A stretch of 64,000 nt of DNA from Chrysoperla carnea (lineage: Eukaryota > Arthropoda > Insecta > Neuroptera > Chrysopidae), in the NCBI RefSeq assembly GCF_905475395.1, contig NC_058342.1, positions 14,790,640 through 14,854,639 of the forward strand, in the 5' to 3' direction. Position 1 is the first letter of the stretch; each line of letters begins with the position of its first letter. Position numbers and translations under genes: made by a program. Below the pieces are notes generated by a model, which worked only from the letters and a program-made list of their open reading frames with translations, had not been told where the DNA came from and searched no databases. This document shows, one piece after another, positions 2,354-54,863 of the stretch.

Positions 2354-4699
2354 TTATAAGATGCATGGTCTACCAAAATTGCCTGGATTGCCACTAATGT
2401 TGACTTCTACTGGAGCAACTTGGTTGTTGGTAATTTGATTATTATTTGGGTATCCTACTGATCCTCCAATAACTGATGGTTGTTGAACAGCATATTGAGC
2501 TGGCAAAACTTGTTGAACACTTGGATAGCTTACAACTTGATTGTAAACTGGTAAAGTCTGTAAAATAAATTTTTATCATTTTCCAATTGTTTCGAATTAA
2601 AGTGTTTCAACCCAATCTGATTTAAAAAGGAAGCGAACTTGACGTTTATCGGAAAAATGGTAAAATAAAGTGATTTGAAATATTACCTGGGAAATGGTGG
2701 AGTATTGTGGAGATAATAAACCGTTGTTTACGTTATTGATGATGTTGGACCCTAATCCATTATTTCCAACGATTCCAACACTGTTGATTGCATTTGGATA
2801 TGAAGAAATGGTTTGGATTTGAGAACCTCCAACAACTGATTGAACATTTGGGTAGCTTACAATTTGGTTAACTGGTAATGTCTGCAAAATATAATTTGTT
2901 TAAATATTTTCGATTAACAAATTGGATATACAATGGACCTTGGTTAAGAGGGACCTGAATAAGCGAGAAACCTCCATAAGTGGAACTCATGCTGAGGTCC
3001 CAACACTTTGGCACTAAATTAACTCTGTTAGTTGGACGAAGCAAACCTCTGTATCTGGGATTCGTTCTTTGGATTTTATCGTCATAGTTACCTCTATAGC
3101 TGAGACAGTGAGTGAATTTTATATGAATTAACCTCTATAACTGAAAACTGAGAAAATATTGTTTTTTTTTTTGTTTGTTTACTTATTCTTATTCTACCCG
3201 TAAATTCCACACTAACTAATTTTGAGCCTCAAGTTTTAGTTTTGTTTATCTCGCAGTACTAGCGTAAAATCCCACGGGCCCCCATGATAAATTTCTTATT
3301 TGATTTTTTTTGATAAATCACAATGTGTAGGAGTTAGAAACTTGTTTTTCCCTATAGCTTCCTATTTTTAACTACACCTAAACTGTATAGTAGCTGGTTT
3401 AAGACATTACCTGTGCATAACCAGGATATTGAACAGTTGATAAACCACTGTTTACGTTGTTTATGATGTTGGAACCACCAAGTCCATTGTTTCCAATGAG
3501 TCCAACACTGCTAATTACATTTGGATATGCACCAATAGTTTGGATTTGTGGATTTCCAATGTTGTTAATGTAGTTGACTGGTCCAGACTATAAGTTCAGA
3601 AAAATTGTTGAAAATATGTTTAGTTTTTCGATATTCAATGATTTAAAATTTTAAGCTTAATTTATGGACAAATCATTGTAGGAATATTGTTGTTAATAGA
3701 AAATTTGACCTATTTAAGTTCGAAAACTTCTAGAATTTATTTTGTTTTAAGTCTTTTTTTGTGAGCTTGGTTACATTCCGGATTTAATCCTAGTAGGAAC
3801 AATTTAAAAAAAAAAAAACAAAAACTAAAAATATTCCTTTAAAGTATAGAATTAAAACATATTTCTGCCATCTATTGCGCAAAAAAAACAATTTTTGGAA
3901 ATTTAAAACAAATAAACATGTGCTAAAATATATAAATAAATTATTATACCATGTATATATGTAATATGCAAGGTATACTAAGTTTAGTCCCAAGTTTGTA
4001 ACGCTTAAAAATATTCATGCTATGAACAAAATTTTGGTATGGGTGTTCATAAAATCACCTAATTAGTCCATTTTCGGTTTTCTATCCGTCTGTCCGTCTG
4101 TCTGTCAACAAGATAACTCAACAATGGTATTTCAACAATTAACTCAGTCAATTGTTTGTTTTCACTTGTTAAATTTTAAAATTATCAAATAGTCTCAAAA
4201 AAATATCTGAAAGAATTAATTTGATATTTTTAAGAAAAAATTTATCTTCAAAATATTGTACTAATTTAATAATTTGATAAAATTTTTGATCAATTTTACA
4301 TTTTCATATCCAAAATTCATAGACCGGAAAAAATAGACCGAAAAAAATTTCTGTAATAGTGTCCCAGAATCCAAAAAACTCCTCTATTGTAAACAAACTC
4401 AACCCAACCAACTCACTCGTAATTACAACAAATCTACGGATCAATAAAATTTTCGGTTAATTTTTCCGGTTGTATTTTTTCCGAATATCGATAAAAATAG
4501 TAGCGAAATATCCTGTTTTAAAATTATTTACCTGAATTGGATACACAGATTGCACTTGATTATCATTTAAGTAAGTAAGTGAACCTTGGTTGGAGAATGG
4601 TGAACCATTTTGATTGTCTGATAAATAGCTTAATGGTTGAGCCATGGTACAACAAACAACTGCTACCAACAATGAAGCACAAACTTGTTTGAATGCCAT
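2354..4699 (-). CDS. G1: secreted N/Q/G-rich family protein, four exons, 247 aa
   Basis: Inferred exons on the minus strand are 4699-4532, 3587-3411, 2881-2687 and 2557-2354. They are 56, 59, 65 and 67 codons plus stop, all with GT..AG junctions in phase 0. Residues 1-20 (MAFKQVCASLLVAVVCCTMA) look like a signal peptide. Next come module A (two YL.DN motifs), module B (IQTIGAYPNVISSVGLIGNN), an extra exon starting TLPVNQIVSYPN and running into a second B-type segment (IQTISSYPNAINSVGIVGNN), and module C ending in GRPCIL. The extra exon makes G1 the longest member and looks like an internal exon duplication. Tandem AATAAA signals lie at 2298-2303 and 2276-2281. Intron 1 carries an R1 copy and intron 2 a decayed transposon-like segment. 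The function is unknown. A secreted structural or effector-like protein is an inference. Confidence 0.85.
2934..3170. repeat. Decayed pogo/Tigger-like repeat inside G1 intron 2
   Basis: The segment contains degenerate repeats of 'acctctataactga' and 'aagagggacctgaataag', the kind of terminal sequence seen in pogo/Tigger-type elements. It lies wholly within the 529-bp intron 2882-3410. There is no ORF. The class assignment rests on terminal-motif resemblance only. Confidence 0.3.
3946..4168 (+). repeat. R1 element, internally deleted copy
   Basis: It has the R1 start (ATACCATGTATA), the GTCC/GTCT microsatellite and the R1 end (TCAACAATTAACTCAGTC ... CACTTG), but the central part of about 400 bp is missing. 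It is flanked by TT on both sides and lies in intron 1 of G1. Confidence 0.7.
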
Positions 4700-9561: not shown

Positions 9562-9595
9562 TTGAATAATATGTTTAAAACAAAACAGCATTTTT

Positions 9596-9817: not shown

Positions 9818-10608
9818 TTAAAAGTAAACTGGACCATTACCAATGTAACCAGGGCAAGGTTGTTGACCACCAATGTTGACTTCCACTGGAGCAACTTGGT
9901 TGTTGGTGATTTGATTGTTATTGTTTGGGTATCCTACTGGTCCACCAATGTAAGCTGGTTGTTGAACAGCATATTGAGCAACTGGTAAGACTTGTTGAGC
10001 ACTTGGGTAACTTACAACTTGATTGTAAACTGGTAAAGCCTATAAAATAAATTTTGGTTATTTTAAAAATTTCTTCGAATCAAAGTATTTCAAATTAAGA
10101 TTATTATAAGAAAAACTTTGTTGTTTAGAAGTCAGCCTTCTTAAATTTGTTAATGTGTTCAAAATTTGAAAAAAAATTACCTGTGCATAACCCGGATATT
10201 GAATTGAGGATAATCCATTTACATTGTTGAAAATATTAGAACCGAATACGTTGTTTCCAACGAGTCCAACATTGCTAATCACACCTGGATATGACCCAAT
10301 GGTTTGTACTTGAGAGCTACCAATGTTGTTGATATAGTTCACTGGTCCTGACTATAAAATTAAAAGTAAAACAATCAATTAAAAAAATTACAAGAATTAA
10401 GACAATTGTTTAATTCAATAATTACCTGTGGGTAAACAATGGGTTGGTTTACGCCATCATCTCTTAAGTAAGTAAAGGAACCTTGGTTTGAGAATGGTGA
10501 ACCATTTTGATCGTTATCTCTTAAGTAACTCAATGGTGTTGCCACTGATAAAACAGTGCAACAAGCTACTGTTACCAACAATGAAGTACAAACTTGTTTG
10601 AATGCCAT
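9818..10608 (-). CDS. G2: secreted family protein, three exons, 191 aa
   Basis: Exons are 10608-10426 (61 codons), 10351-10181 (57) and 10039-9818 (73 plus stop). All introns are short (74 and 141 bp), GT..AG and phase 0. Residues 1-23 form a signal peptide (MAFKQVCTSLLVTVACCTVL, then SVA before TPLSY). Module A has YLRDNDQNGSPFSNQG and a second YLRD. Module B has QVQTIGSYPGVISNVGLVGN, with FGSNIFNNVN. Module C has ALPVYNQVVSYPSAQQVLP and ends QQPCPGYIGNGPVYF with one cysteine. It is closest to G9, especially in exon 3 and beyond the stop. The open frames beginning inside exon 2 or 3 are not separate genes. Role unknown. The absence of transmembrane segments and enzymatic motifs fits a secreted structural or effector-like protein. 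Confidence 0.87.
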
Positions 10609-19442: not shown

Positions 19443-21838
19443 TCAAAGATATTGTGAGCGCTTGTCCAAGATGAAACGCAAATATTTATACACTGCTTTA
19501 AGATCTACAATATTCTTAGCGTCCAAAATCAATTTCGTATTATTCAATCCGCGACTGTAAAGATCGTCTCTTTCATTCCCTACTGTCCCATATCACTCCT
19601 CTATAAGATGTTCAATTGTTTCAATTCCGTTACACAGAACACAAACTCTATCCCCGCTTCGGTTTTTCTTATTTTCCCAAGCAAACCTGTTCATTCTGAA
19701 AATAGCAATAGTTCTTCTTACATCTCTGTCTGTTAAATTTACATACATTGCTCCACCCTCATAGTGATCCAATTTTGAATACAAATCCAATGAAACCTTA
19801 TTCCTCACATCCAATAGCATTTCTTTCAGGAAGTACTCATACACTGTACTTTTGACATGTTTTCCGATCTCTAAATAATTGTCATGAGCCACATCCATCG
19901 CGTTAAATCCTAATTCCAATAATTTGTTTTTAATTATTGGAGTTGTATCGTTTAAGCTGTAACAATTTCTCTGTAATATTTTGTTGCTTAAATGAATTCG
20001 ACAATAATAGTTTATAAGATGTTGTAATATAGTGGCTTCGATCGAGATTTCCCCTAACTCCAACTTAACCGCACTGTTTGGTGATGATTTTGCAACTCCT
20101 AAAACTTCTTTATAAAAGCTATGAACAAATATACCGATAGACTTTTCACATTTTTCTAGACCCCAAATTTCTTTCCCATATAATAAGATGGGTAGTACCA
20201 TCACCCTAAACATATTTAATAGAATTTTAGGTGGAAAATTTTCATAGCTATAAATTTTTCTTCGAATCACCATTAATGCTTTGTTGGCTTTCTCAATCAT
20301 TTTGCTTTGATGCAGACCCCATTTTCCGTTGCTACAAATAAAAAGCCCCAAATATTGAAAGTTATCAACTACCTCGATTTTGAAACCATTATACATCCAA
20401 TTTTCGTTCCTGCCCTGCTTGCTACCATTTCGGATTGTTAGCATTTTCGTTTTTTTCACATTAACCGTTAACTTCCATTTGTCGCAAAAATCTTCAAGCC
20501 CTTTTAAAGCTCTTCGCATTCCACCAACTGAGTTTGACAACAGAACTGCATCATCGGCATATAACAGAATTTTAATTTCATCCCCTTTGATACAGGGAGA
20601 AATAGTTTCAAGACCTTCCATATGATTAACAATATTATCGATAAATAAAACAAACAATATAGCAGACAATTGACATCCTTGTCTTAATCCCTTCATAGTG
20701 TAAAATACGTCCGACACATGATATTTATCAATACGTAAACAGCATCCAGGTTCTTTATATATTGACTTTAAAATTTCCACCATATTTACAGACATTTTCA
20801 TTTTTAACAGTTTTTTCCATAATAAATTTCTATCGACAGAATCGAATGCCTTTTCAAAATCAATGAAACGGCAATACAATTTATTACGTTTTAATGTAAG
20901 TGTTTTTTGAATCAATGTTCTCATAACTAGTAAATTGTCCAGTACCTCATACCCCACTCTAAATCCTGTTTGATATTTAGAAATTTTCTGTTCAGTCTCA
21001 ACCCATTCTTGAATCCTCATTGACAACAGCTTAGTGTAAATTTTACTGATACTCGGCATTAAAGTCAATCCTCGATAATTATTTGGATCCAGTGCACTTC
21101 CCCTGCCTTTAAATAAATTACAAATTATACCGACATTCCATTCCTTTGGAAATATTTTGACTTCCATCAATTTGTTTCATAAATTCACAAAAATAATCAA
21201 AGCATCATAATTATTATTCAAAAACCCACACTTTAAAAATTCATTCACAATACCATCTCTGCCGCCAGCTTTATTTGATTTTAAATTACTTAGTACCAAG
21301 CGAACCTCTGATATATTTATCGCTGCATCCAAAACATCGCTGTAAGTGTTATATTCTCTTTCATCGCTAATTTCCCCCAAGTTAACTTCCGCATAATCAC
21401 ACTGTTCGCCGTATAAATTCCGATAATGTTGAATCCATTCATGAGGAGCAATATTATTAAAATTATTATTATTATTGGCTCTATGATCATTATTTTTCAA
21501 TAACAGCCAGAGCCCTTTATTTTCCTTTGCCTCTAAGGCTGCATGTATTTCCTGAATATATTTTAATACGTGCTCAAATTTTTTCGTTCTGCATAAATTT
21601 TTATGATATTTTCGACATTCTACATATTCTATAATGCTTTCCTGATTTACATTTTTTCTCATGATTCGTAATTTACATTTTAAATCTTTCTTCTTGCTTT
21701 TACATTCAGCATCAAACCAAGTGTTTTTGTTGTTTGCATTTGGCGCTCGACCAATAAACTCACTTTCCATTTCACTTCCCAAGAAACTAAACCATTTATG
21801 CATAAGCAAAACTGTATTGGTTATATCATTTCATTCCA
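19443..21838 (-). pseudogene. LINE ORF2: linker, reverse transcriptase and C-terminal zinc motif
   Basis: One frame runs from about 21838 to TGA at 19445-19443, interrupted by TGA at 21179 and 19595. Visible RT landmarks are PKEWNVGIICNLFKGRG, NNYRGLTLMPSISKIY, RFIDFEKAFDSVDR, GLRQGCQLSAILFVLFID and the catalytic LLYADDAVLL, followed by FQYLGLFICSNG. Near the end CVLCNGIETIEHLIEE reads like the start of a CxxC..H....C knuckle. The expected last cysteine position is the TGA at 19595, after which the frame continues for about 49 codons (YGTVGNERDDLYSRGLNN...). The enzyme would copy the element's own RNA at the target site. This copy cannot make the full protein. Confidence 0.8.
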
Positions 21839-21883
21839 GCATCCATTTTAAGCCAATTAAAAATAACTCAGTTTCATTTCCAT

Positions 21884-22813
21884 TCAAATTACATAAAAAA
21901 TTATCCCTCTCATTTTCCTTCCATTTAAACACTTTCTGATTTTAGATCCTACTGAGCGTTTTTCTCCTTCCGTTTTTATCGAATTCAGTTGTACCTCCAC
22001 AGGAAAATGCTGTGATTGACTTTCATCTCCAACTTTTAAATCAATGCCGTCGTTCCACAATGCGGACGTTACAATAACATAATCTACTAAACTGCAGCCA
22101 TTTTTCGATACAAAAGTCAACTCGCCCGCCTTATCACTTTTATTTCTACCATTTAAAATTATAAAATCTAAATCGCGTACAAATTTTAAAAATTGCTTAC
22201 CGTATTTATTCAAAACCTTATCCTTACTTTTCCTGTCCCTTATTTTAGTATTTAACACATCATACGCAAAAGAACAACAATATCTATCCACTTCAGTTTG
22301 ATCATCACCTTCTGCATTTCCAGTTCGAGCATTCCAATCCCCACCCATAATTATTTCTGCCTTTGGATACCTTTGAGACAAGCTTATTATTTCTTCTTGC
22401 AACTGGTTAAAAAAGTCAATATTGGCCAAAACCGAACTTTCTGGATGTAAGTAAACTATTCCCAACAGAAAAACTGTGTCACAATCCTCAAATAAAACCC
22501 ACATTACCTCTTGTAAACTACTAAAAATTTCCGTAACTTTATTTTGAAATTGCGAACTATAGAACACCGCTAATCCACCCGGAAATCTACCTCTTTCTAC
22601 AATTCTACTTCTATTTTCAACTAAACATTCATACCCATCTAATTCGAATTTCAAGTCGCCTTGTGACCATGTTTCAACTAAACAAATAAAAGAAAAATTT
22701 TTTATATAACTAATAATACTATTGTCCTGTAACTTAGATTTTAAACCCTCTATATTCCAGAACACTACACTTAAGTTTTTCTTAAAATCAATTAGTTTTT
22801 TGGTGGTTGATTT
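21884..22813 (-). pseudogene. LINE ORF2: AP-type endonuclease domain
   Basis: The frame is open from 22813 to 21884. Motifs of the APE/EEP endonuclease fold are visible: FWNIEGLKSKL, CLVETW (catalytic Glu), GGDWNAR (Asp/Asn), SLVDYVIVTS and SQHFPV (final His). No ATG lies at the front, so the 5' end is probably truncated. A frameshift near 21940 moves the coding into the next frame, where KENERDNFLCNLNGNE continues toward the RT. The domain would nick the target DNA for priming reverse transcription. Confidence 0.75.
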
Positions 22814-23818: not shown

Positions 23819-23876
23819 TCACGCACAAAAATGAGTTAAAATGCGTTTAATCATCTTCAAATTTGAATATAAAAAG
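23819..23876 (+). promoter_or_regulatory. G4 core promoter and family upstream element
   Basis: TCACGCACAA at 23819, TTAAAATGCGTTTAATCAT downstream of it, and TATAAAAAG at 23868-23876. It is nearly the same layout as G3 although the G4 mature protein is unrelated. Confidence 0.7.
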
Positions 23877-23950
23877 ATTTCAAAGCAAACAAACTTCATA
23901 CCGAATTCAAAATCAATTCAATTATTAACAATAATCAAAGATTGTCAACA

Positions 23951-24453
23951 ATGGCATTCAAACAAGTTTGTACTTCATTGTTAGTAGCAGTTATCTGTTG
24001 CAGTGTTATAACAGAGATCTGTGCTCAAGCCCAGGTTCCAATTCGCCCATTTGATTTGATAGGGGTAAATAATTTTTAAATTTTTATATCAATGTTTTTG
24101 ATATTTAAAAAAATTCCCCAGGTCGATTTTGTAAACTAACGTATGTCCATTCAATGTTAGTAAATGTTTCTTAAAAATAACTTTACCAACGGAGGAGTTT
24201 ACTTACTTTGACTTTTTTTTTTTTTTTTTTATTTTGACTTAAATAATACGTTCAACGTAAAGAAACGTTCAATATAAAGAACAGCACATTAGAACAGTCA
24301 TTGAACACGCAACTTCTTTAACTTTTTTTTTTTTAATTTAATTTCTTTTTCCAGACTGTTGCAGAGAATCTGGAGGATCAAGCTCAAGAGTTCTTTGAAG
24401 CTCCATTTAGTATGGCATTTTTGCTGGACCGCATCAACCCTTTCGAAAATTAA
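23951..24453 (+). CDS. G4: family signal peptide joined to an unrelated short mature protein, 70 aa
   Basis: Exons are 23951-24064 (38 codons) and 24355-24453 (32 plus stop), with a GT..AG phase-0 intron of 290 bp. Residues 1-25 (MAFKQVCTSLLVAVICCSVI, then TEICA) are the family signal peptide and are almost base-identical to G3. The mature part, QAQVPIRPFDLIG then TVAENLEDQAQEFFEAPFSM and AFLLDRINPFEN, has no YLRDN, SQIQTI or QQVLP modules. It is short, acidic and probably helical, without cysteines after the signal peptide. Promoter, start-site region and 3' UTR (AATAAA at 24457-24462, then TTTTTGTTTACAAATAAAT) match the family, so only the middle was replaced or diverged completely. No known domain is recognised. 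Splice sites are inferred from consensus and frame. Exon 2 alone would be missed by simple ORF finding. Confidence 0.72.
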
Positions 24454-24469
24454 AAAAATAAATATATTT

Positions 24470-25349
24470 TTGTTTACAAATAAATAGAATTTTATTCCAA
24501 TACATATTTTAGTTTTTATTTTTTGAAATCCACATTCCTTTAACAAGCGGAACACTTATATTTGTGTTCCCACGCCCATGTGATGGCAAAAATATAAAAT
24601 ACTTATTTTAAGAAGTTTTTTGTGAGTAACAATTTATTTTAGTCTTTATTAGACTTTTTTAAAGAATACTTGCTAATAACAACCATGAGCGAAGCCATGG
24701 GGGAAGCAAGATGAGCAATCGGTCCTTAATTAAAATTCCCTGGCCACACCAATGATGGCTAGGAATACTTGATTAAATTTTAAAGTTTAAGCAGTTTTAT
24801 AAATGTTTTTATTATACTTTTGAATACTTTTTAGAGTAAGAGCCAGCGCCTGCCAGACATACGTTAAAGTATAAAAACTGAAATTTTGTTTGCGTATTCT
24901 CACTGGTGTAGGGACCAATCTTTGGGGTAGGGACCAATCTTTTACAATCTTTTACTCACGATAAAGTATAAAAGCTGAAATTCACACAGAGTGTTCAAAT
25001 GACCATTTTAAGTCAATATTGAAAAAGACATATCAATCCATCCAACTAACATTAGAAGACATATCGGTCAAATATTCAATAAGTAAATCGTCATAGTTGT
25101 ATAAGTCATAAACGGTTAGTGATACAAAAAAAATTAGTTTACAAAAAAGTAGGTAATTTAATTATCTACAATAAAAGTTATTACCATTTTTGGTCTAAAG
25201 CGCACGGTTATGGAGATATAGCCTAAAACGGGTTTCCTTAAAATGGAGGCACTTCCCCCGCTTATTTTTGTAAGGATTTTGTGCTTTTAAATTCAGTACG
25301 TGAGACTGAACATATTTAAATAATAAAATAACTTTTGCAGTGAAATAAG
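24470..25349. other. Intergenic, nothing recognised
   Basis: No supported gene or RNA. 'gtagggaccaatct' occurs twice near 24908-24940, a small local duplication. Confidence 0.4.
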
Positions 25350-25762
25350 TTCATAATCACTAAATTAGTCCATTTCCAGTTGTCTGTCTGTCTGTTGTCT
25401 GTCTGTCCGTCTGTCATAACGATTACTCAAAAACGAAAGGAGGTATCAAGCTGAAATTTTTATAGTGTGCTAAGGGCTGGAGTAAAGTCGAGTTCGTAAA
25501 TGAGCAACATAGGTCAATTGATTCTTGGGTCCGTAGGACTCAATTGATACAACAGAAGTTTAACATTTTTTCGTATACATCACTGTTTACCCGTTAGAGC
25601 GCAAATTATGCGCAAATTGTTTAGTATGTATTATATGGAAATATCAGTTATATGTGTGTGACATGTATGTATGTGTAATGTGACACTATCTATGCATGGT
25701 AATCAACCTGTCTATGCATGGTATTTCAACAATTAACTCAGTCAATTGTTTGTTTTCACTTG
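25350..25762 (+). repeat. R1 element, 5'-truncated copy
   Basis: It begins in the 'ttcataatcactaaattagtcc' part, has an expanded GTCTGTCTGTTGTCTGTCTG microsatellite and reaches the intact 3' end (CATGGTATTTCAACAATTAA ... CACTTG|TT). Confidence 0.65.
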
Positions 25763-26228
25763 TTCCGCGTAAAATTTGGATAAAAAATTTGTTGCTGCTT
25801 ACACTTTAACTTGTTACGGTGCATAGAGTCAGCAAGGTTTTCTCGATCGGTTCGAGAAAATCGTTTTTTTCACAACTAATTAGCAACTAATAATCTAAAA
25901 ATTATGGCGTTATTTTTTTTTTTTTCATTTCAGCTAATTTAACATTGCCAGTTTTATAGACCTAAATAATTGGTTACAGCGAAACACTTGTGTCAATTTA
26001 CCTAATTATATTTGTTAATAAGCTCCAATGGACCTTTTAATTATTCTTATTTACGTGCAGAAAAAGAAGTTGTAGTAAGGAGCACAATTATTAAAAATTT
26101 CTTAATGTGTTGGACTCCGTCAAATGGGAGGAGCCTAAGAAACACGCCGTCAATAAGGGTAAATTTACAATAGTTCCTATAGTTTACCGTGCAATTTCTT
26201 AATTTCTTAATTTTTAAATTAAAATAAA
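25763..26228. other. Intergenic, nothing recognised
   Basis: AT-rich DNA between an R1 copy and the SWIM-like fragment. No feature supported. Confidence 0.35.
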
Positions 26229-26498
26229 ATGATAAGTATTGGCACAATATGTGATTGGACTGATACAAACCCTCGGAAAAGAAATTTCGTTGAAGGTGAG
26301 CGTGTTTTTAATGCCAATCACATAATCAAATTCGGAAAAAACGGATCTGAAAGCGAACCTTCAAATTCTGTGAAGTTTAGTGCCTACTGTCTACAAACTT
26401 CAGATTTAAAAAGTGATTCGCATGAAAGACATGTTGAGGTGACTTCAAGTGGCAATATTATATCAATGACTTGCACGGTACAAACAAAAATGAATTGA
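26229..26498 (+). pseudogene. Fragment of a SWIM zinc-finger transposon-type protein (tentative)
   Basis: An 89-codon open stretch contains EGERVFNANHIIKFG, VKFSAYCLQTSDLKSDSHE and VEVTSSGNIISMTCT. The spacing (GE..NA.HI, then a CLQ/S block, then a strand ending MTCT) is that of the region just before a SWIM finger (CxC...CxH) in insect repetitive proteins. Here the frame ends one residue after the first cysteine, so the CxC and CxH ligands are absent. It is a truncated, non-functional piece if the assignment is right. No neighbouring part of such a gene is seen. Confidence 0.3.
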
Positions 26499-26620
26499 AC
26501 CGCCCTTGGTCGGTATTATATTATTTAAACAACAATTTCGAAAGTGCCTTATATACTTTTGTTCAAAACCAAATAGTTAAGAAATTATGGGCACTATCAA
26601 GACCTCAAAGATAATAAAAA

Positions 26621-27209
26621 CAAGTGAAAACAAACAATTGACTGAGTTAATTGTTGAAATACCATGTATAGACAGTGTTGATGCGCAATCGTTTTTTTTT
26701 TTTGACGTCACGTAAATAACAAAAGATATTCACTTTTAAATAGACACACACGTAACTGATATTCCTATATTAATACATATTATAAAATTTGCACATAATT
26801 AACGCCCTCGTGGGTAAACAGTGATGTTTACAAAACAATGTTTCAAACAAAAGTTTTTTATTTTTTTATAAGGATCATTTTTTACAAACTTTTGTTCTAT
26901 CTCTAACGGTTTACAAGATGGGTCCTACGGACCCAAGACCCAATTGACCTACGATGCTCATTTACGAACTTGACCTCACTTTTTACGTCCTGAGTACGCA
27001 GTAAAAATTTCAGCTCGATATCTTTTTTCGTGTTTGAGTTATCGTGTCCACATACGGACGGACGGACGGACGGACAACCGGAAATGGATTAATTAGGTGA
27101 TTCTATGAACACCTATACCAAAATTTTTTTCGTAGCATCAATATTTTTAAGCGTTACAAACTTGGGACGAAACTTAATATACTATGTATATTTCATATAT
27201 ACATGGTAT
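26621..27209 (-). repeat. R1 element, full-length-like copy
   Basis: On the minus strand it runs from ATACCATGTATATATG (27209) to CACTTG (26621), bordered by TT at each end. It contains GTCCGTCCGTCCGTCCG, the core 'aaaccgttagagatagaac' and the terminal hairpin CAATTAACTCAGTCAATTG. Confidence 0.75.
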
Positions 27210-27221
27210 AAAAATAGTAAA

Positions 27222-27790
27222 CAAGTGAACAAAAATCATTGACTAAGTTGAAATACCATGTAAAGATAGTGTTGATTACGCAATCATTTGTTTTTTTACG
27301 TCATACAATTAACGAAAGATAGCCACACATACATACATACTTGTCACACAAACTTAACTGATATTCCCATATAATACATACTATATAATTTGCGCCTAAT
27401 TTGCTCTCTCACGGGTAAACAGTGATGTTTACGAAAAAACAAAAGTTGTTTATTTTTTATAAGGAACATTTTTTACATTTAAACTTTTGTTTTATCTCTA
27501 ACGGTTTTTAAAATGGGTCCTAAGAACCCAAGACTTTGACCTACGTTGTTCATTTACTCAACCTCAGTTTTAATGTCCTGGGCACGCTCTAAAAATTTCA
27601 GCTTGATATAATTTATTGTTTTTGAGTTATCGAGTTGACAGACGGACGGACGGGAAACCGAAAATGGACTAATTAGGTGATTTTATGAACACCTATATCA
27701 AAATTTTGTTCGTAGCGTCAATATTTTTAAGTGTTACAAACTTGGGAGTAAACTTAGTATACCGTGATATATTTCATATGTACATGGTAT
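27222..27790 (-). repeat. R1 element, full-length-like copy
   Basis: A second minus-strand R1 only 12 bp from the previous one. It has the same order of blocks, with a degenerate terminal hairpin and a shortened GTCC tract. Confidence 0.75.
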
Positions 27791-27898
27791 AATTAATCTG
27801 GTAAGCTATGTAATTGTTTTGCCATTTTATTGTTAAGGTGAAATTTGATAATGTATGTTTGTTTTTATTTTTTAAGTTGTAATTTTAAGATTAATTTA

Positions 27899-28054
27899 AT
27901 GGCTACATGTAAAAACCAAGAATATGTCGATATTCACCTTATTTACGCATATAATGACGGAAATGGAACAGCGTCAGTACTGGAATATCAGCGTCAGATT
28001 CTTCATCGAAGAGCTCCTAATAAAGAAGTGTTTCGACGAAGAAGCTATCCTTAA
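27899..28054 (+). pseudogene. Fragment of a helix-turn-helix (DUF4817-like) transposon protein (tentative)
   Basis: From ATG 27899 the frame reads MATCKNQEYVDIHLIYAYND, then GNGTASVLEYQRQIL and HRRAPNKEVF, and stops soon after. This resembles the small N-terminal helix-turn-helix region ('YTNEEYADM.L.YGE..GNAR.A...Y.ERFPNRRHP...TF') common in insect transposon-derived proteins. Only this N-terminal piece is present and it ends in a frame-disrupted RRRSYP. It would be a DNA-binding remnant. Not a host gene. Confidence 0.35.
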
Positions 28055-28143
28055 TATGGTCGAAAATAGCCCCTTTAGTAGTGTATGAAGAAAAATTTTC
28101 ACTACTTTTCTCACGAATGCAGTGTCCGATCAAGGGGGGGGGG

Positions 28144-28340
28144 GCTACAATGGTTACACAGTAATCTCGGTAACCCATGTAGGAAAGTACGGCGGGAGCA
28201 GGCTTGGTCCAACTATCCAGAACTCTGGGCCAGACTTGTAAGCCAGACTTGGCCCACGCCTGGTTGGCAGGGCTGGGCCATAGTTAAGTTTTAAGTCTGG
28301 CCCATGCCTGGTTGGCAGGGCTAGGCCATAGTTAAGTTTT
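28144..28340. repeat. GC-rich short duplication
   Basis: A unit of about 57 bp ('ggcccatgcctggttggcag', then 'ggccatagttaagttttaag') occurs twice in a row and a partial third time. It has GC content far above its surroundings and TTGGCCCA-type words like the minisatellite at 28894. A run of at least 11 G precedes it. Confidence 0.6.
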
Positions 28341-28754
28341 AAGATTATTTTATGAAGAATTCTATTTTGTGATTTATTTGACAGCGCCAATCCCAGCTGT
28401 ACTGCAACACTGAGTCAACCCGCGGTAGAAGAGGAGCAAGCTCTTCAAGCTCTTACACGTTGATCTTAGCTCAATGAGCCGAGAAGCGAGAACATTGTAC
28501 CGGTTTATATACACCTTACTAGAACATCTTACTAGTGAGAGGTTTTAAAAATAAATATTACTTTGTAAAAAGGATAGTGACTAAAAGACAGAGAAGGAGG
28601 AAGTTATTGTAAGTACATGTACCTACTCCATAAACAGTATTACACATGCATTGTATACCTTTTGGTTGTATATGCCATTTTTTGTTAGGTATTTAAAATT
28701 TTTACAATGTCAAAGGTGCCCATTTCAGGAGTTTATGTCATCAATGTAATTAAT

Positions 28755-28756
<2 letters not shown>
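28341..28756. other. Intergenic between two GC-rich repeat blocks
   Basis: It contains GC-richer words ('gagccgagaagcgagaac', 'caagctcttcaagctctt') that may be part of the same composite repeat. No gene recognised. Confidence 0.3.
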
Positions 28757-28847
<91 letters not shown>

Positions 28848-28848
28848 T
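28757..28848. repeat. (TAA)n microsatellite
   Basis: About 30 uninterrupted AAT/TAA units. A minus-strand ORF with a poly-isoleucine run is simply this repeat translated. Confidence 0.95.
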
Positions 28849-28893
28849 GACGATTTATTCTGCGATTTCCCTTCAATAAGTGAATATTGTCAG

Positions 28894-29405
28894 CCAAGAC
28901 TAGGATGCCTAGTCTTGGCCCAAGACTGGGCTCCCTTGCGTTTGCCGTTCTATGGCAAACCAATGTTGGCCCAGGCTTGGATAATCATTGGATTGGCCAA
29001 GGCTAGGATGCCTAGTCTTGGCCCAAGACTGGGCTCCCTTGCGTTGGCCGTTCTATGGCAAACCAATGTTGGCCCTGGCTTGGATAATCATTGGATTGGC
29101 CAAGGCTAGGATGCCTAGTCTTAGCCCAAGACTGGGCTCCCTTGCGTTTGCCGTTCTATGGCAAACCAATGTTGGCCCAGGCTTGGATAATCATTGGATT
29201 GGCCAAGGCTAGGATGCCTAGTCTTGGCCCAAGATTGGGCTTCCTTGCGTTGGCTGTTCTATGGCAAACCAATGTTGGCCCAGGCTTGGATAATCATTGG
29301 ATCGGTCAAGGCTGGGCAACCCAGCCTTGTCCCAGGCTCGGGCAATCGTTGGGTCGGCCAAGGTTAATTATTTCATCTTGGCTCAAGCATGGGCCAAAAT
29401 CGGGG
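28894..29405. repeat. 103-bp GC-rich minisatellite with hairpin-forming units
   Basis: Units start at 28894, 28997, 29100 and 29203 (exact 103-bp spacing), with a diverged fifth from 29306. Each unit has AGTCTTGG-C-CCAAGACT, a perfect hairpin, and next to it CCAAGRCTAGG-ATG-CCTAGTCTTGG, a near-perfect one. The unit is much richer in G+C than the rest of the window. Overlapping ORFs (28915-29536) are the repeat read in frame-shifted turns since 103 is not divisible by three. Confidence 0.9.
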
Positions 29406-29629
29406 CGCCAAAGCTGGTATCCCTAGTACTGGACCAGGCGAGGCCCGGTCGTTCAACTATGGCGGTTCCTACATGGGAATCGGAACTCAATAAGACCAGG
29501 GCTGTTTCGAAAACTGAGATTGTCTGGAAAAATTAACTATAATTTATAAATAAAATAAAATACCATTGAAATCTATGTATTTAAGCGAAATTGTATGTAT
29601 ATATAATACATTTAAGCGAAATTGTATGT

Positions 29630-30404
29630 ATACAGGTGATTTTTAAGTTGGTATTTGCTTAAAACTCCAAAAATAACTGTTATCGATAAAAATGCTTCAA
29701 GCGACAATGTTTTCCAGCTCAATCTACTCCATAACTGCAGGTAATCGATTAATGAACACTTTAAATTAGAAAGTTGTTAATGATTAAAAAAGTAACATTT
29801 TTTGATCGAACCATTTTCCGTTATCGTACAGTTTAGGCAAAAACGGACTGAAAAGTTTTACACAAAATTGTTCGTATCAAAATTGTTATTTTGTATAATC
29901 GTTTCTGCGAAATTTGGGCACTCTTCGAAAAAAATTTTCTATTAAATAATATAAAAATGGTTCGTTTTTGTATAAAGACTATTTTAGTTCAAAATGAATG
30001 AACAAACGCGCTAAAAGTTGATTTTTGCTATCAATTACTGTCTTAACTATTCGGTTGACAAAAAAATATTTACTTTTTATAAAGAACAACTTTCTAATTC
30101 ATCTGTTTGCCAGTTATGAATCAATGTTCATTTTCCTCAATCAATCATTTTTCTCGATGAAATTTATTTTTCGAGTTTCAAGATATGTCAACTTAATAAA
30201 AACAGCCTGTGTATGGTATGATTGCAAAGGGCGGCAACTATTATTTTTTGTCCGTAGCGGCTAAATAGATCGAACCCTGCAACAATGTCTTTAATTTATT
30301 GGTTGAATTCAATAGGGTTTTGGACAAAAGTATCGCCTCAAAATTATCCAAAGAATACGCTCTAAAGCTATGTCCATCGAGCCACGGGCACCCTGTATAC
30401 AGTT
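29630..30404. repeat. Candidate inverted-end element (TATACAGGG-type ends)
   Basis: TATACAGGTG near 29630 faces TATACAGGGTGCCCGTGG on the opposite strand near 30404. The interior is AT-rich and without a coding ORF. Terminal repeats of only about 11 bp make this tentative. Confidence 0.3.
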
Positions 30405-30547
30405 TTTGTAAACAATTATTAAAAAAATTAAAAACAAAGTGATTCGAAATAAATTTTTTTTTTGTATTTGTCAGCAAAAAAATTATTATTATGATTTCAC
30501 AAAAATAACAAATTTTGTACAAATTTTTCTGATATTGCCACAATTTT

Positions 30548-31605
30548 CTAGCGACCATAGTTGATTTCAACTGGAGCAACTTGGTTGTTGGTGATTTGAT
30601 TGTTATTATTTGAGTATCCTACTGGTCCACCAATGTAAGCTGGTTGTTGAACAGCATATTGAGCAACTGGTAAGACTTGTTGAACACTTGGGTAGCTTAC
30701 AAGTGGAGCTTGTGCAAAAGTGCTTGTGGGATATTGGATTGTTGATAAACCGTTTAATCCATTTACGTTATTAACGTTGTTTATGATATTGGAACCAAAT
30801 CCATTGTTTCCAACGAGTCCAACATTGCCAATTACTCCTGGATATGAACCAATAGTTTGTACTTGAGAACTACCAATGTTGTTGATATAGTTCACTGGTC
30901 CTGACTATAAAATTAAAACAAAAACAATGAGTATATTATTCAGAAGAAATATAGTTCAGGAAATAATGAACACCAAAGTTTCTTCCTAAGTTGCCATCTC
31001 ACGGATAAAAAGATGTTTACGAAAATGATTCAAATAAAAGTTACTTATTTTTTTATAATTTTTTAAGGAATAACTTTTACATTTAAACTTTTGGTCTATC
31101 TCTAACGGTTCACAAGATGGATATTTTTTCCTTTGATTGAATGAGCCAAAAAATTACATTTTAAAATTTTCATATCTCGGACAATTTTGAAGCTAGAAAG
31201 TCGAAAAAAAACGAAAAGCTTTTTTTGTAATTTGTATAAAAATGAGTAAAATTCCCAACTACCCCCCAGAAATGGGGATTAGGCGAGCCCCTAAGAGGTC
31301 GACTTTCTTTTACGAAGTTTTTACAACCTTATAAACAATTGTGGAAAATTTAATTTTTCCCTTTTAGATAATTAGTTTAATTGTAGTTATTGTACAAATT
31401 AAATTGTAAAAAAATTATTTACCTGTACTGGATAAACGGCTGATACTTGGTCATTATCTCTCAAATAAGTAAATGTACCTTGATTTCCGAATGGAGAACC
31501 ATTTTGGTCGTTATCTCTTAAGTAACTCAATGGTGTTGCCACTGACAAAACAGTGCAACAAGCTACTGCTACCAACAATGAAGTACAAACTTGTTTGAAT
31601 GCCAT
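30548..31605 (-). CDS. G5: secreted family protein, two exons, shortened C terminus, 179 aa
   Basis: Exons are 31605-31423 (61 codons) and 30904-30548 (118 plus TAG), phase-0 GT..AG intron of 518 bp. There is a signal peptide as in G2, then YLRDNDQNGSPFGNQG and YLRDNDQVSAVYPVQ. Modules B and C are in one exon, with INNVNNVNGLNGLSTIQYPT. A two-codon insertion (TS) lies before FAQAPLVSYPS, created by a duplicated ACAAGC. The protein ends PVEINYGR, whereas G6-G8 continue SGSQGYLGSPIIF: about 30 bases of the tail are deleted relative to them. Exon 1 and the intron are close to those of G6. The AATAAA signal is degenerate here. Probably still a working secreted protein, though the altered 3' end could mark early decay. 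Confidence 0.82.
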
Positions 31606-33955: not shown

Positions 33956-33999
33956 GCAATCGATCGAAAATAGTACACCAAGTTAGATAATTTCTGGGA

Positions 34000-34518: not shown

Positions 34519-34549
34519 AATCCGAAATCCAAGTGAAACGGGACGTGAA

Positions 34550-39112: not shown

Positions 39113-40208
39113 TTAGAAAATGATTGGGCTACCAAGATATCCTTGGCTACCACTAAAGTTAACTTCAACTGGGGCAACTTGATTGTTGGTGATTTGATTG
39201 TTATTGTTTGAGTATCCTACTGGTCCACCAATGTAAGCTGGTTGTTGAACAGCATATTGAGCAACTGGTAAGACTTGTTGAACACTTGGGTAGCTTACAA
39301 GTGGAGCTTGTGCAAAAGTGGGATATTGGATTGTTGATAAACCGTTTAATCCATTTACGTTATTAACGTTGTTTATGATATTGGAACCAAATCCATTGTT
39401 TCCAACGAGTCCAACATTGCCAATTACACCTGGATATGAACCAATAGTTTGTACTTGAGAACTACCAATGTTGTTGATATAGTTCACTGGTCCTGACTAT
39501 AAAATTAAAACAAAAGCAATGAGTATATTATCCAGAAGAAATAGTTCGGGAAATAATGGACACCAAAGTTTCTTCCTAAGTTGCGATCTCACGGATAAAT
39601 AAATGTTTAGATGTTTACGAAATGATTCAAATAAAAGTTGTTTATTTTTTTTATAAGGAATAACTTTTACATTTAATTTTTTGTTCTATCTCTAACGGGT
39701 CACAAGATTGGCACATTTTTTTTTGATTGAATGAGCAAAAAAATTACATTTTAAAATTTTCATATCTCGGACAATTTTGAAGCTAGAAAGTCGGAAAAAA
39801 CGAGAAGCTTTTTTTGTAATTTGTATAAGTATGATTAAAATTCCCAACTACCCCCCAGGAATGGGGATTAGACGAGCCCTTAAGAGGTCGACTTTCTTTT
39901 ACGAAGTTTTTACAACCTTGTAAAGAACTGTGGGAAATTTCAAGGATGCATTAATTTTTCCGTTTTAGATATTTAGTTTAATTGTAGTGCTATTGTACAA
40001 ATTAAAATGGAAAAAAATTATTTACCTGTACTGGATAAACTGCTGATACTTGGTCATTATCTCTCAAATAAGTAAATGAACCTTGATTTCCGAAAGGGAA
40101 ACCATTTTGGTCGTTATCTCTTAAGTAACTGAGTGGTGTTGCCACTGATAAAACAGTGCAACAAGCTACTGTTACCAACAATGAAGTACAAACTTGTTTG
40201 AATGCCAT
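39113..40208 (-). CDS. G6: secreted family protein, two exons, 188 aa
   Basis: Exons are 40208-40026 (61 codons) and 39496-39113 (127 plus TAA); GT..AG, phase-0 intron of 529 bp. The signal peptide is MAFKQVCTSLLVTVACCTVL then SVA. Module A is YLRDNDQNGFPFGNQG and YLRDNDQVSAVYPVQ. Module B is SSQVQTIGSYPGVIGNVGLV with INNVNNVNGLNGLSTIQ. Module C is APLVSYPSVQQVLPVAQYAV, ending SGSQGYLGSPIIF without cysteine. The mature protein has no Cys. Exon 1, the intron and the start of exon 2 match G5; from about the codon for YPGV onward and into the 3' UTR the sequence matches G7/G8 instead. AATAAA on the minus strand is at 39038-39033. Function unknown. Secretion is inferred from the signal peptide. 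Confidence 0.87.
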
Positions 40209-41492: not shown

Positions 41493-41702
41493 CGGCTGTT
41501 TGATCAAGTACGTTGAATGTTCATTTTTTTTTTTTTTTGCGGTAAATGATGGCACGAAGTCCCTTGATCACAATAAACACAGTTTTGGGGCCTCTTACGG
41601 GGCAAAATTGAGAACTATTTCATTTAAAATTGTGATTTTTAACACAATACCTTATGGAAGAACACATACTATTCTGTTTATACGAAAAAAACATTACCTT
41701 AC
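41493..41702 (+). repeat. Interspersed repeat, copy 1 (partner near 62968)
   Basis: It shares 'gaatgttcatttttt', 'gcggtaaatgat', 'aataaacacagttttggggc' and 'attgtgatttttaacacaat' with 62968-63249 in the same orientation. Copy 2 is longer by an internal segment of about 70 bp. Element class unknown. Confidence 0.6.
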
Positions 41703-41737
41703 CTTAGTACAGTAAATATAGATATTTTATTTAAAAA

Positions 41738-43357: not shown

Positions 43358-44645
43358 ATGGCATTCAAACAAGTTTGTACTTCATTGTTGGTAACAGTAG
43401 CTTGTTGCAGCGTTTTATCAGTGGCAACACCATTGAGTTACTTAAGAGATAATGACCAAAATGTTTCACCATTCCAAAACCAAAACCAAGGTTTTGTATA
43501 TTTAAGAGACAATGGAGTTAATCAACCAGCCGTTTATCCAGTACAGGTATTATTTTTTTTAAAATTATTTGTTTATATTTTTTTATCCCATTCGAAGAAG
43601 AAAATAAGCAACTATTTTTGAATAACTTACAACGGTTTTTCATATCGGTTCAATTTATGATCTATTTAAAAAAGAAATTCTTAACTTTTTATCTATCTGA
43701 AAATCATAAAGCGATTTTGAATGCGTCAAAATTTAAATTAGGATAATTATCAAATATAGAGGGAGGACACATGGTGAAAGTAAATTGAAAGCTCTCAAGT
43801 TAAAAAAGAATTTTAAACATGCTATTTCTGCATTTCAAATTCAAATTGTAATGACCTTGTATAATAAACGTTTTCATTTTAAAAAGTGATTACCTTTTGA
43901 TAAAATGAATTACAAATAACTTGTATCTTTGTCTAATTTATTACTGTGTCTACAAAACAATAATGAATCGTAATTGAAATTAGAAGGTCTTTTCAAAATC
44001 ATCATAGAGACCGTTCCTACAACATCAGCTATAGTTACTAAAAGCTCAGACTTAAGAGGTAGCGTTCAAACGTTTCAATCTAACGTCATCTATTTTTAAA
44101 TAATTTTTGAAAAAATTTTTTGAAATAATTTATCAAAAATTCAAAACGAATCTGCATTTTTTTAAATAAAACTCGAATCCCCAAATTATCTTCTATCTTC
44201 GTTATTGTTATACTCATTGTAATTTTTTTTTTTTAATTTACAGTCAGGACCAGTAAATGTTGTTAATAATCTTGGAAACTCACAAATCCTTGGAAGTTCT
44301 CAAATCCAAACGATCTCTTCATACCCAGGTGTAATTGGCAATGTTGGACTCGTTGGAAACAATGGATTTGGTTCCAATATCATAAACAACGTTAATAACG
44401 TAAATGGATTAAACGGTTTATCAACAATCCAATATCCCACTTTTGCACAAGCTCCACTTGTAAGCTACCCAAGTGTTCAACAAGTCTTACCAGTTGCTCA
44501 ATATGCTGTTCAACAACCAGCTTACATTGGTGGACCAGTAGGATACTCAAACAATAACAATCAAATCACCAACAATCAAGTTGCCCCAGTTGAAGTTAAC
44601 TTTAGTGGTAGCCAAGGATATCTTGGAAGCCCAATCATTTTCTAA
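43358..44645 (+). CDS. G7: secreted family protein, two exons, 196 aa
   Basis: Exons are 43358-43546 (63 codons) and 44244-44645 (133 plus TAA), GT..AG phase-0 intron of 697 bp. The signal peptide is MAFKQVCTSLLVTVACCSVL then SVA. Module A is YLRDNDQNVSPFQNQNQG, VYLRDNGVNQPAVYPVQ. Module B starts SGPVNVVNNLGNSQILGSSQ, closer to the start of the G3 exon than to G6, and from YPGV onward is the G6 sequence. Module C ends SGSQGYLGSPIIF. The mature protein lacks cysteine. AATAAA is at 44720-44725. Gene and flanks are duplicated in inverted orientation as G8 with the same protein. Role unknown. Confidence 0.88.
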
Positions 44646-45192: not shown

Positions 45193-45199
45193 ACTTCGT

Positions 45200-48524: not shown

Positions 48525-49812
48525 TTAGAAAATGATTGGGCTTCCAAGATATCCTTGGCTACCACTAAAGTTAACTTCAACTGGGGCAACTTGATTGTTG
48601 GTGATTTGATTGTTATTGTTTGAGTATCCTACTGGTCCACCAATGTAAGCTGGTTGTTGAACAGCATATTGAGCAACTGGTAAGACTTGTTGAACACTTG
48701 GGTAGCTTACAAGTGGAGCTTGTGCAAAAGTGGGATATTGGATTGTTGATAAACCGTTTAATCCATTTACGTTATTAACGTTGTTTATGATATTGGAACC
48801 AAATCCATTGTTTCCAACGAGTCCAACATTGCCAATTACACCTGGGTATGAAGAGATCGTTTGGATTTGAGAACTTCCAAGGATTTGTGAGTTTCCAAGA
48901 TTATTAACAACATTTACTGGTCCTGACTGTAAATTAAAAAAAAAAAATTACAATGAGTATAACAATAACGAAGATAGAAGATAATTTGGGGATTCGAGTT
49001 TTATTTAAAAAAATGCAGATTCGTTTTGAATTTTTGATAAATTATTTCAAAAAATTTTTTCAAAAATTATTTAAAAATAGATGACGTTAGATTGAAACGT
49101 TTGAACGCTACCTCTTAAGTCTGAGCTTTTAGTAACTATAGCTGATGTTGTAGGAACGGTCTCTATGATGATTTTGAAAAGACCTTCTAATTTCAATTAC
49201 GATTCATTATTGTTTTGTAGACACAGTAATAAATTAGACAAAGATACAAGTTATTTGTAATTCATTTTATCAAAAGGTAATCACTTTTTAAAATGAAAAC
49301 GTTTATTATACAAGGTCATTACAATTTGAATTTGAAATGCAGAAATAGCATGTTTAAAATTCTTTTTTAACTTGAGAGCTTTCAATTTACTTTCACCATG
49401 TGTCCTCCCTCTATATTTGATAATTATCCTAATTTAAATTTTGACGCATTCAAAATCGCTTTATGATTTTCAGATAGATAAAAAGTTAAGAATTTCTTTT
49501 TTAAATAGATCATAAATTGAACCGATATGAAAAACCGTTGTAAGTTATTCAAAAATAGTTGCTTATTTTCTTCTTCGAATGGGATAAAAAAATATAAACA
49601 AATAATTTTAAAAAAAATAATACCTGTACTGGATAAACGGCTGGTTGATTAACTCCATTGTCTCTTAAATATACAAAACCTTGGTTTTGGTTTTGGAATG
49701 GTGAAACATTTTGGTCATTATCTCTTAAGTAACTCAATGGTGTTGCCACTGATAAAACGCTGCAACAAGCTACTGTTACCAACAATGAAGTACAAACTTG
49801 TTTGAATGCCAT
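48525..49812 (-). CDS. G8: secreted family protein, inverted twin of G7, 196 aa
   Basis: Exons are 49812-49624 (63 codons) and 48926-48525 (133 plus TAA), exact mirror positions of G7. The first-exon frame, intron borders and final SGSQGYLGSPIIF agree with G7, and no coding difference was seen. Promoter and 3' UTR (AATAAA at 48450-48445) are included in the duplication, so it should be expressed like G7. The two genes converge tail to tail with about 3.9 kb between their stops. As with G7, secretion is supported by the signal peptide and function is unknown. A collapsed or duplicated assembly region cannot be excluded from sequence alone. Confidence 0.85.
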
Positions 49813-53326: not shown

Positions 53327-54863
53327 TTAAAAGTAAACTGGACCATTACCAATGTAACCAGCGCAAGGTTGTTGACCACCAATGTTGACTTCCACTGGAG
53401 CAACTTGATTGTTGGTGATTTGATTGTTATTATTTGGGTATCCTACTGGTCCACCAATGTAAGCTGGTTGTTGAACAGCATATTGGGCAACTGGTAAGAC
53501 TTGTTGAGCACTTGGGTAACTTACAACTTGATTGTAAACTGGTAAAATCTGCAAAATAAATTTTGTTTTTACTTTTCAAATCAAAAAAATTAATCCAATT
53601 TTTTATAAAATTGCAAGAGATTAATCCTTATTTTGGCAGTTTTTAAAAATTACCTGTTCGAAAGTAGGATATTGGATAGCAGATAAACCGTTTACACCGT
53701 TTACGTTGTTGATGATGTTGGAACCAAATCCATTATTTCCAAAGAGTCCAACATTACTAATTGCATTGGGGTAGGTTGCAATAGTTTGGATTTGGGAACC
53801 CCCAATAAGATTGTTGACATAGTTTACTTGTCCATTCTATAAATTTTAAAAAAATACGTGAGTATTACAGTATTCAATAATTAAAAATTTAAGGTTAATT
53901 TATAACAAAGTCCTTCATTCCTTCAGAAGATCAAAAAGCATCTCTATCATCCTGTCATTCTGAACCTTCTAAAGTCTAAGCCCAGCCCTGGTTGTCACGA
54001 TAGCTTAGTATCTACGTAACCCGTCAGCACTTAGTATCTACTTAGTATCCACGTAACTCGTCAACTACCCGATTTAAAACATAAGTAAATAACTTTTATT
54101 TTCAAATGGTATTTCTGATTGAACCTTTTTCTATCTTTAATTATGTCTTTTCTTATTTTATCAGTTTTAAAAAATATATTTTTCCTTCAGAAATTTTGAG
54201 AATTTCTTTTATCATGAGAGTCAAGGTGTAAGCAAAAAAATATTAACTTCGTTAATTGTCGGTCTGGTCGTGTACTTTCGTTAGTATATTACAAGTCGTA
54301 CTGAGTAAATTAAAAAACTTGTAATAGAAATATGGTGAAATTAATTAAAATGTATCTGATAATTTAGATTGTTTCTCTACTCTAATATTTTCACTCTTAA
54401 ACATCATTTAATAATCACATAATCAAACTATTTTTAATTAGCTCGTGCATTAAAAAATAAATTTATATAAAATTTTGTAGAGGTTATGATTTACAAAGTT
54501 AAAATATATTTAACGCGCGAAATATTTGACGACGCATGTGCAGAAAGCATGAAAAAATCATCACGCGACTAAAGAATACCGAACGGTTGACGCGAATGCT
54601 GACGGGTTAATTTAAAACTCCATCACTATTCATGCAAAGCACCTTTAGGTTAAAACATTTTCTTTATTTACCTGGTATGGCAAAACAGTTTGCACTTGAT
54701 TTACGCCATTATCTCTTAAGTAGACAAAACCTTGATTTTGATTTTGGAAAGGTGAACCATTTTGGTCGTTATCTCTTAAGTAACTCAATGGTGTTGCCAC
54801 TGACAAAACAGTGCAACAAGCTACTGTTACCAACAATGAAGTACAAACTTGTTTGAATGCCAT
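53327..54863 (-). CDS. G9: secreted family protein, three exons, 198 aa
   Basis: Exons are 54863-54672 (64 codons), 53836-53654 (61) and 53548-53327 (73 plus stop), with phase-0 GT..AG introns of 835 and 105 bp. The signal peptide is as in G2. Module A is YLRDNDQNGSPFQNQNQG and VYLRDNGVNQVQTVLPYQ, combining the G7-type first exon with its own end. Module B starts NGQVNYVNNLIGGSQIQTI rather than SGPVNY and ends STYLE-like to the others with LSAIQYPTFEQ. Module C is ILPVYNQVVSYPSAQQVLP and ends QQPCAGYIGNGPVYF with one cysteine, nearly the same as G2. AATAAA lies at 53253-53248. The 3' flank is shared with G2. Function unknown. Confidence 0.86.

What the first reader, a model, noticed from the sequence alone, without database searches (positions are those of the whole stretch)
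23951..24453. Chimeric family member: constant promoter, signal peptide and 3' UTR, entirely different mature protein
G4 has the same TATA/upstream element, an almost base-identical signal-peptide exon start (MAFKQVCTSLLVAV) and the same 3' UTR motif (AATAAATATATTTTTG, then ACAAATAAAT) as G3, but none of the family modules. The middle has been exchanged or has diverged beyond recognition while the ends stayed constant. This constant-signal/hypervariable-mature pattern is known for secreted salivary gland proteins of gall midges. If the same here, the locus would be a generator of new secreted proteins.
Basis: partly seen in the sequence, partly recalled or inferred. Interest (0 to 1): 0.8.

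Follow-up and report, generated by a model that had tools for sequence, protein, structure and literature searches.

The report
Lacewing secreted-protein gene with replaced middle
In a green lacewing gene cluster, one of nine related genes keeps the family's on-switch, secretion signal and end signal but encodes an unrelated small protein, a likely example of a new secreted protein made on an old chassis, while the other eight genes are ordinary conserved relatives.

Summary
The window is green lacewing (Chrysoperla carnea), not gall midge: five gene models here equal four NCBI lacewing proteins letter for letter. Nine genes begin MAFKQVC. G4 (23951-24453) is a family member at both ends: profiles built without it find its promoter plus signal peptide (E 2.5e-35) and 3' tail (E 8.2e-6). 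Between them nothing matches the family on either strand. Its predicted 70-aa product had no match among database proteins of about 39-122 aa. Relative g54863 has a 5' cassette about as diverged as G4's yet keeps a 68-83% identical mature protein, which favours replacement over gradual change; but G4's signal codons are more diverged than any canonical pair's. The locus shows exon mosaicism, exon duplication and phase 0 at all 14 introns. The gall-midge parallel holds for G4 alone: the other genes are conserved (pN below pS in 21 of 21 pairs), so a 'generator' is not supported. Expression, other genome copies and the donor of the new exons were untested; the genome search did not complete (19 tries).

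The parts
23819..23950 (+). G4 promoter (TATAAAAAG 23868-23876) and 5' UTR, homologous to the 8 family genes
   Evidence: leave-G4-out profile hit 23819-24009 E 2.5e-35; 401 vs 153 sd 13 shuffles; alignment A1
23951..24013 (+). G4 signal-peptide codons, homologous to family; codons 1-10 identical at silent sites to the seven aligned relatives
24014..24064 (+). rest of G4 exon 1, start of the mature part, no homology to the family
   Evidence: 10/60 shuffles as good; GC 0.49
24065..24354 (+). G4 intron, 290 bp, GTAAAT...TTCCAG, phase 0 (predicted)
24355..24453 (+). G4 exon 2, 32 codons plus stop, no homology to the family
   Evidence: 45/60 shuffles as good; no homologue found in the size range searched
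24453..24500 (+). G4 3' tail with AATAAA signals, homologous to family tails
   Evidence: leave-G4-out profile E 8.2e-6; alignment A2
2354..4699 (-). g4699, canonical member, 247 aa, 4 exons with a duplicated module exon (3587-3411 and 2881-2687)
9818..10608 (-). g10608, canonical member, 191 aa = P0003 (LOC123302402)
30548..31605 (-). g31605, canonical member, 179 aa = P0002 (LOC123302958)
39113..40208 (-). g40208, canonical member, 188 aa, mosaic of g31605-like 5' part and g43358-like 3' part
   Evidence: 61/66 and 54/57 informative sites, 0/300 permutations
43358..44645 (+). g43358, canonical member, 196 aa = P0001 (LOC123302399)
48525..49812 (-). g49812, inverted near-identical copy of g43358, same protein P0001
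   Evidence: arms 43153-45473 and 47697-50017, 1 difference in 2321 bp
53327..54863 (-). g54863, canonical member, 198 aa = P0004 (LOC123302396); internal control with a diverged promoter but canonical protein

Best explanation
G4 is an old duplicate in a lacewing cluster of secreted, probably disordered proteins. Its inner coding part was replaced by unrelated sequence, while its promoter, 5' UTR, signal peptide and polyadenylation region were kept. Shown: family homology of both ends, none detectable in the middle. Inferred: the gene is transcribed by the same TATA promoter in the same cells, its 290-bp intron is spliced, and the cell secretes a Cys-free acidic peptide of about 45 residues (net charge -6 if cut after EICA; the cut site is my reading, no predictor was run) through the old signal peptide. 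The likely route is recombination or exon acquisition in a cluster whose 14 introns are all phase 0 and whose members visibly exchange and duplicate exons; that route itself is not shown.
For: Both ends homologous with G4 left out of the profile: E 2.5e-35 and 8.2e-6. Middle at shuffle level by DNA on both strands, by the canonical protein profile (best E 0.76) and by local protein alignment (582/1000 shuffles as good). Internal control: g54863's 5' cassette differs from the other six distinct canonical genes by 0.216-0.263, G4's from seven by 0.213-0.333, yet g54863's mature protein stays 68-83% identical. Coding signs in the new parts: GC 0.49 and 0.43 against 0.24 in the intron; codon-position GC 0.61/0.33/0.41. 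Locus plasticity: mosaic g40208, duplicated exon in g4699, all 14 introns phase 0.
Against: By the signal-peptide part alone G4 is more diverged (0.130-0.159) than any canonical pair (0-0.111; silent sites 0.25-0.43 against 0-0.25), so it may be older than the g54863 control, whose divergence lies mostly in the promoter. Gene conversion could also spoil this clock. No transcript or peptide seen for G4; database proteins of about 23-74 aa and 39-122 aa gave no match. No convincing donor for the new exons in the window (best E other than itself 0.08 for DNA, 1.0 for protein). The open frame alone is weak: 6% of single-base shuffles stay open. Two pairwise tests were borderline (G4 mature vs g4699, 3/200 shuffles; vs g43358, 7/200); the test over all seven genes was not (582/1000 local, 86/1000 semi-global).
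Confidence: 0.55

Rival explanations
1. G4's mature part descends from the canonical one by very fast but continuous change (relaxed or positive selection after an old duplication), with constraint holding only promoter, signal peptide and poly(A) region.
For: The homologous blocks end where function would end; most introns of the family no longer align over 250 bp or more.
Against: The canonical mature part is conserved (pN below pS in 21/21 pairs), and pairs with 5' cassettes about as diverged keep 68-83% identity. No residual similarity to the canonical profile in six frames.
Confidence: 0.23
2. G4 is a dead remnant: an internal deletion or rearrangement joined the two ends around non-coding DNA that happens to stay open for 49 codons.
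For: No annotated protein in the size ranges searched. Open frame by chance in 6% of shuffles. 7 of 86 strong acceptors in the window, family genes not excluded, have as long and as GC-rich an open frame.
Against: GC and codon-position pattern are coding-like, intron AT-rich. Exon 2 stops right before the conserved tail. Signal-peptide frame intact, with pN 0.05-0.09 below pS 0.25-0.43.
Confidence: 0.14
3. Reverse polarity: a short G4-like gene is ancestral and the canonical modules were added later.
For: G4's 5' cassette sits on a long branch and the tree root is open. G4 has a simple two-exon structure.
Against: Nothing positive for it. The other eight genes share the modules. The tree is unresolved (support 20-60).
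Confidence: 0.08

Closest known systems
Hessian fly SSSGP genes (PMC2955719; text parts 1-3 of 5 read)
   Same: Clustered small secreted-protein genes with constant promoter, UTRs and signal peptide around an unrelated mature part; an inverted duplicate in the cluster.
   Different: There the pattern runs through several gene families, introns are conserved in SSSGP-1, and mature dN/dS exceeds 1 in the pairs tabulated. Here 1 of 9 genes shows it, the G4 intron is not conserved, and the canonical genes have pN below pS. Different insect order.
Pea aphid KQY/KHI cassette effectors (PMC7495047; passages and Discussion read)
   Same: Conserved signal-peptide region joined to divergent downstream coding sequence; swapping proposed; mosaic genes mentioned.
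   Different: Those are large genes of many miniature exons, mostly scattered. Here they are small 2-4 exon genes in one cluster.
Neuropterin-1 and N-TIL-like genes of Chrysoperla carnea (PMC12758981; sections 7-10 read)
   Same: Same species; [quoted passage not shown]
   Different: A TIL-domain family, to which no link was tested here; low similarity remained there, while none is detectable in G4. Expression and venom peptides were shown there, nothing of the kind here.

Membership tests
Hessian fly-type SSSGP (SSSGP-1 pattern) | conserved promoter, 5' UTR and signal-peptide coding region | tested here: met
Hessian fly-type SSSGP (SSSGP-1 pattern) | conserved 3' UTR | tested here: met
   only about 50 bp around the poly(A) signals
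Hessian fly-type SSSGP (SSSGP-1 pattern) | conserved intron, in or at the border of the signal peptide | tested here: not met
   G4 intron not homologous, 17 codons past the compared signal codons
Hessian fly-type SSSGP (SSSGP-1 pattern) | super-diversified mature parts across the family | tested here: not met
   only G4 of 9; the 7 distinct canonical genes are 68-96% identical in the mature part
Hessian fly-type SSSGP (SSSGP-1 pattern) | dN/dS above 1 in mature parts | tested here: not met
   pN below pS in 21 of 21 canonical pairs; not computable for G4
Hessian fly-type SSSGP (SSSGP-1 pattern) | clustered genes with an inverted copy | tested here: met
Hessian fly-type SSSGP (SSSGP-1 pattern) | salivary gland expression | not testable with these tools
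   no expression data held
C. carnea canonical MAFKQVC family (six NCBI proteins seen: LOC123302396, 302399, 302402, 302403, 302407, 302958) | shared promoter, signal peptide and 3' tail | tested here: met
C. carnea canonical MAFKQVC family (six NCBI proteins seen: LOC123302396, 302399, 302402, 302403, 302407, 302958) | shared mature modules (LSYLRDN, SGPVNY, Q/N-rich C-terminus) | tested here: not met
KQY/KHI cassette effectors | many miniature exons | tested here: not met
   2-4 exons, 66-414 nt
Neuropterin-1 / N-TIL-like | sequence relation to N-TIL-like genes | not tested
   their sequences are not in the text read; two canonical proteins scanned (P0001, P0003) have no Pfam match

The most novel reading that the evidence does not exclude
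The MAFKQVC promoter-plus-signal cassette and its 3' tail act as a portable chassis in lacewings, onto which phase-0 exons from elsewhere are repeatedly loaded, so that the cluster and its copies elsewhere seed new orphan secreted proteins; G4 is the first such product seen.
Probability: 0.13. Interest if true: 0.65.

Novelty: new member of a known kind. Interest (0 to 1): 0.4.

Why it matters
It gives a single case, with an internal control, of a secreted-protein gene whose inside was probably exchanged while its switch, address label and end signal stayed. The unchanged siblings beside it serve as a rough clock. The same pattern is known from gall midge and aphid effectors, and a related one from one lacewing venom peptide. 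Finding it in a lacewing cluster that is otherwise conserved suggests such swaps can happen without a hypervariable family. It makes the origin of an orphan secreted protein testable by comparing sister Chrysoperla genomes.

Tried and rejected
Gall-midge origin: rejected, the gene models match Chrysoperla carnea proteins. G4 middle as an inverted piece or another frame of canonical exons: no support. A remnant of the 'YLRDNDQNGSPF' module in G4's C-terminus (LLDRINPFEN): looked suggestive (3/200), not significant (582/1000 local, 86/1000 semi-global). A donor for the new exons within the window: none convincing (best E other than itself 0.08 DNA, 1.0 protein). G4 as an alternative end of a neighbour: the tblastn hits of the two canonical proteins printed (P0003, P0006, of six searched) leave 24014-30553 empty at E<=1e-3. 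Tree of the 5' cassette: unresolved (support 20-60). First identity table with gapped global alignments: uninformative in AT-rich DNA and dropped in favour. nhmmer printed nothing; run again with a built profile. Rfam (gathering threshold) and tRNA scans of the window: nothing. Structure of the canonical protein: mean pLDDT 36.5 from six sequences, no usable fold, so no fold search was made. PDB sequence searches gave only one weak match each (E 0.56 and 0.033), not followed. Paper searches for MAFKQVC and for six LOC names: 0 papers. A search with Chrysoperla, gene-family and gene-conversion terms listed 8 of 221 papers, none holding the word Chrysoperla. Egg-stalk silk (PMC5485732) was looked at in passages only and no link was tested.

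One search printed 38 of 105 gene triplets (0/300 permutations and statistic above 20). Rate differences along the gene contribute to some; only g40208 is relied on. The copy g49812, near-identical to g43358, was left out. The duplicated exon 3 of g4699 was left out of the alignments (protein profile).

Full report
What it is. The window is from the green lacewing Chrysoperla carnea. Exon 2 of one cluster gene hits six NCBI lacewing proteins, each on a contig of 38.6 Mb, and five of the gene models built here equal four of those proteins letter for letter: g43358 and g49812 = P0001, g31605 = P0002, g10608 = P0003, g54863 = P0004. The cluster has nine genes that begin MAFKQVC, on both strands, over about 52 kb.

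The observation. G4 is at the stated coordinates. Exon 1 is 23951-24064, the intron 24065-24354 is 290 bp with GT-AG ends, exon 2 is 24355-24453, and the product is 70 aa. Scored against seven distinct relatives and 60 dinucleotide-preserving shuffles, three parts are homologous: the 139 bp before the ATG, the signal-peptide codons and the 3' tail (0/60 shuffles each). Far upstream, the rest of exon 1, the intron and exon 2 are at shuffle level, and no segment scores on the reverse strand. Profiles built without G4 find it at 23819-24009 (E 2.5e-35) and 24453-24500 (E 8.2e-6). Each profile finds nine places in the window at E<=1, all of them family genes, with G4 the weakest. Two-ended homology with nothing detectable between is therefore real; the tail, 11% GC, is the weaker end.

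Is the middle only old? The other genes give a rough clock. Over the 5' cassette G4 differs from its seven relatives by 0.213-0.333; canonical g54863 differs from the other six by 0.216-0.263. Yet g54863's mature protein is 68-83% identical to theirs, whereas G4's mature part aligns no better than shuffled sequence. At the family's pace G4 should still look like its relatives, about 70-75% by a weak linear fit (r -0.34). The clock is not clean. Split into parts, g54863's divergence is mostly promoter (0.313-0.373) with signal codons at 0.016-0.111, while G4 has 0.246-0.417 in the promoter and 0.130-0.159 in the signal codons, more than any canonical pair. Silent sites say the same: G4's signal codons pS 0.25-0.43, canonical signal codons 0-0.25, canonical mature parts 0.09-0.45. 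So G4 may be the oldest branch, or conversion may keep the canonical signal codons alike: g10608 and g54863 are identical over 18 signal codons although their promoters differ by 37%. Even so, canonical mature parts at pS 0.33-0.45 still align well, with pN 0.10-0.18. Replacement is the simplest reading; very fast divergence of an older copy is the main rival.

Is it a gene? The new parts look coding: GC 0.49 and 0.43 against 0.24 in the intron, codon-position GC 0.61/0.33/0.41; the canonical exons too are GC-richer than their introns. The signal peptide keeps pN below pS. Against: no match or annotated protein in the searched size ranges, and a frame that stays open in 6% of shuffles. No transcript evidence was available.

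How it could arise. All 14 introns in the nine gene models are phase 0, so exons can be exchanged without breaking the frame. Exchange is visible: g40208 matches g31605 at 61 of 66 informative sites on its left and g43358 at 54 of 57 on its right, 0/300 permutations. g4699 carries a duplicated module exon, and g13509 has an extra 59-bp intron exactly at the signal/mature border. A LINE-type element with endonuclease and reverse-transcriptase domains lies between g13509 and G4. No convincing donor of G4's exons was found in the window, and the rest of the genome could not be searched.

How it would work. By inference, the TATA promoter drives G4 in the same cells as its siblings, and the old signal peptide sends out a Cys-free acidic peptide of about 45 residues. 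Of the canonical proteins, P0001, P0003 and one exon have no Pfam match, and P0001 has no predicted fold (mean pLDDT 36.5 with six sequences). They look like disordered, Q/N-rich extracellular proteins of unknown tissue.

What is known. In Hessian fly SSSGPs the pattern runs through several families with positive selection (PMC2955719, parts 1-3 of 5 read). Aphid KQY/KHI genes carry divergent parts behind a constant signal region (PMC7495047, passages and Discussion). In this very species, Neuropterin-1 kept signal peptide and exon structure while losing its domain (PMC12758981, sections 7-10). G4 works like these, but its family fails three defining SSSGP features: family-wide diversification, dN/dS above 1, and a conserved intron. 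No paper in the library holds MAFKQVC or the six LOC names searched.

Verdict. A sound observation; one likely swapped gene in an otherwise conserved lacewing family; a known kind of event in a new place. Moderate interest.

Noticed in passing
43153-45473 and 47697-50017: Inverted duplication, 2321-bp arms with one difference, holding g43358 and g49812: very recent, freshly converted, or an assembly palindrome.
   Followed up: partly
39113-40208: g40208 is a mosaic of a g31605-like 5' part and a g43358-like 3' part, with the switch inside the gene.
   Followed up: partly
first 10 codons of 8 aligned genes (e.g. 23951-23980): 29 of 30 columns invariant, silent sites included, while the 30 bp just upstream in G4 have 14 of 30. 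g10608 and g54863 are identical over 18 codons although their promoters differ by 37%. Nucleotide-level constraint or local gene conversion.
   Followed up: partly
2687-2881 and 3411-3587: g4699 carries a duplicated module exon, 247 aa against 179-198 in the other canonical genes.
   Followed up: no
13575-13633: g13509, alone among the nine gene models, has a 59-bp phase-0 intron exactly between signal peptide and mature part.
   Followed up: no
19593-22813: LINE-type element with endonuclease and reverse transcriptase domains, minus strand, in three separate reading frames, next to a TA microsatellite.
   Followed up: no
33991-35783: LTR-type remnant: a reading frame with RNase H domain and further frames that read like integrase; the integrase label is my reading, not from a call.
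   Followed up: no
26674-27220, 46977-47516, 56358-56923, 62063-62633, 9056-9563, 41687-42127: A dispersed repeat of about 400-570 bp, copies about 82-91% alike's list, with ATACCATGTATAT-like sequence at one end.
   Followed up: no
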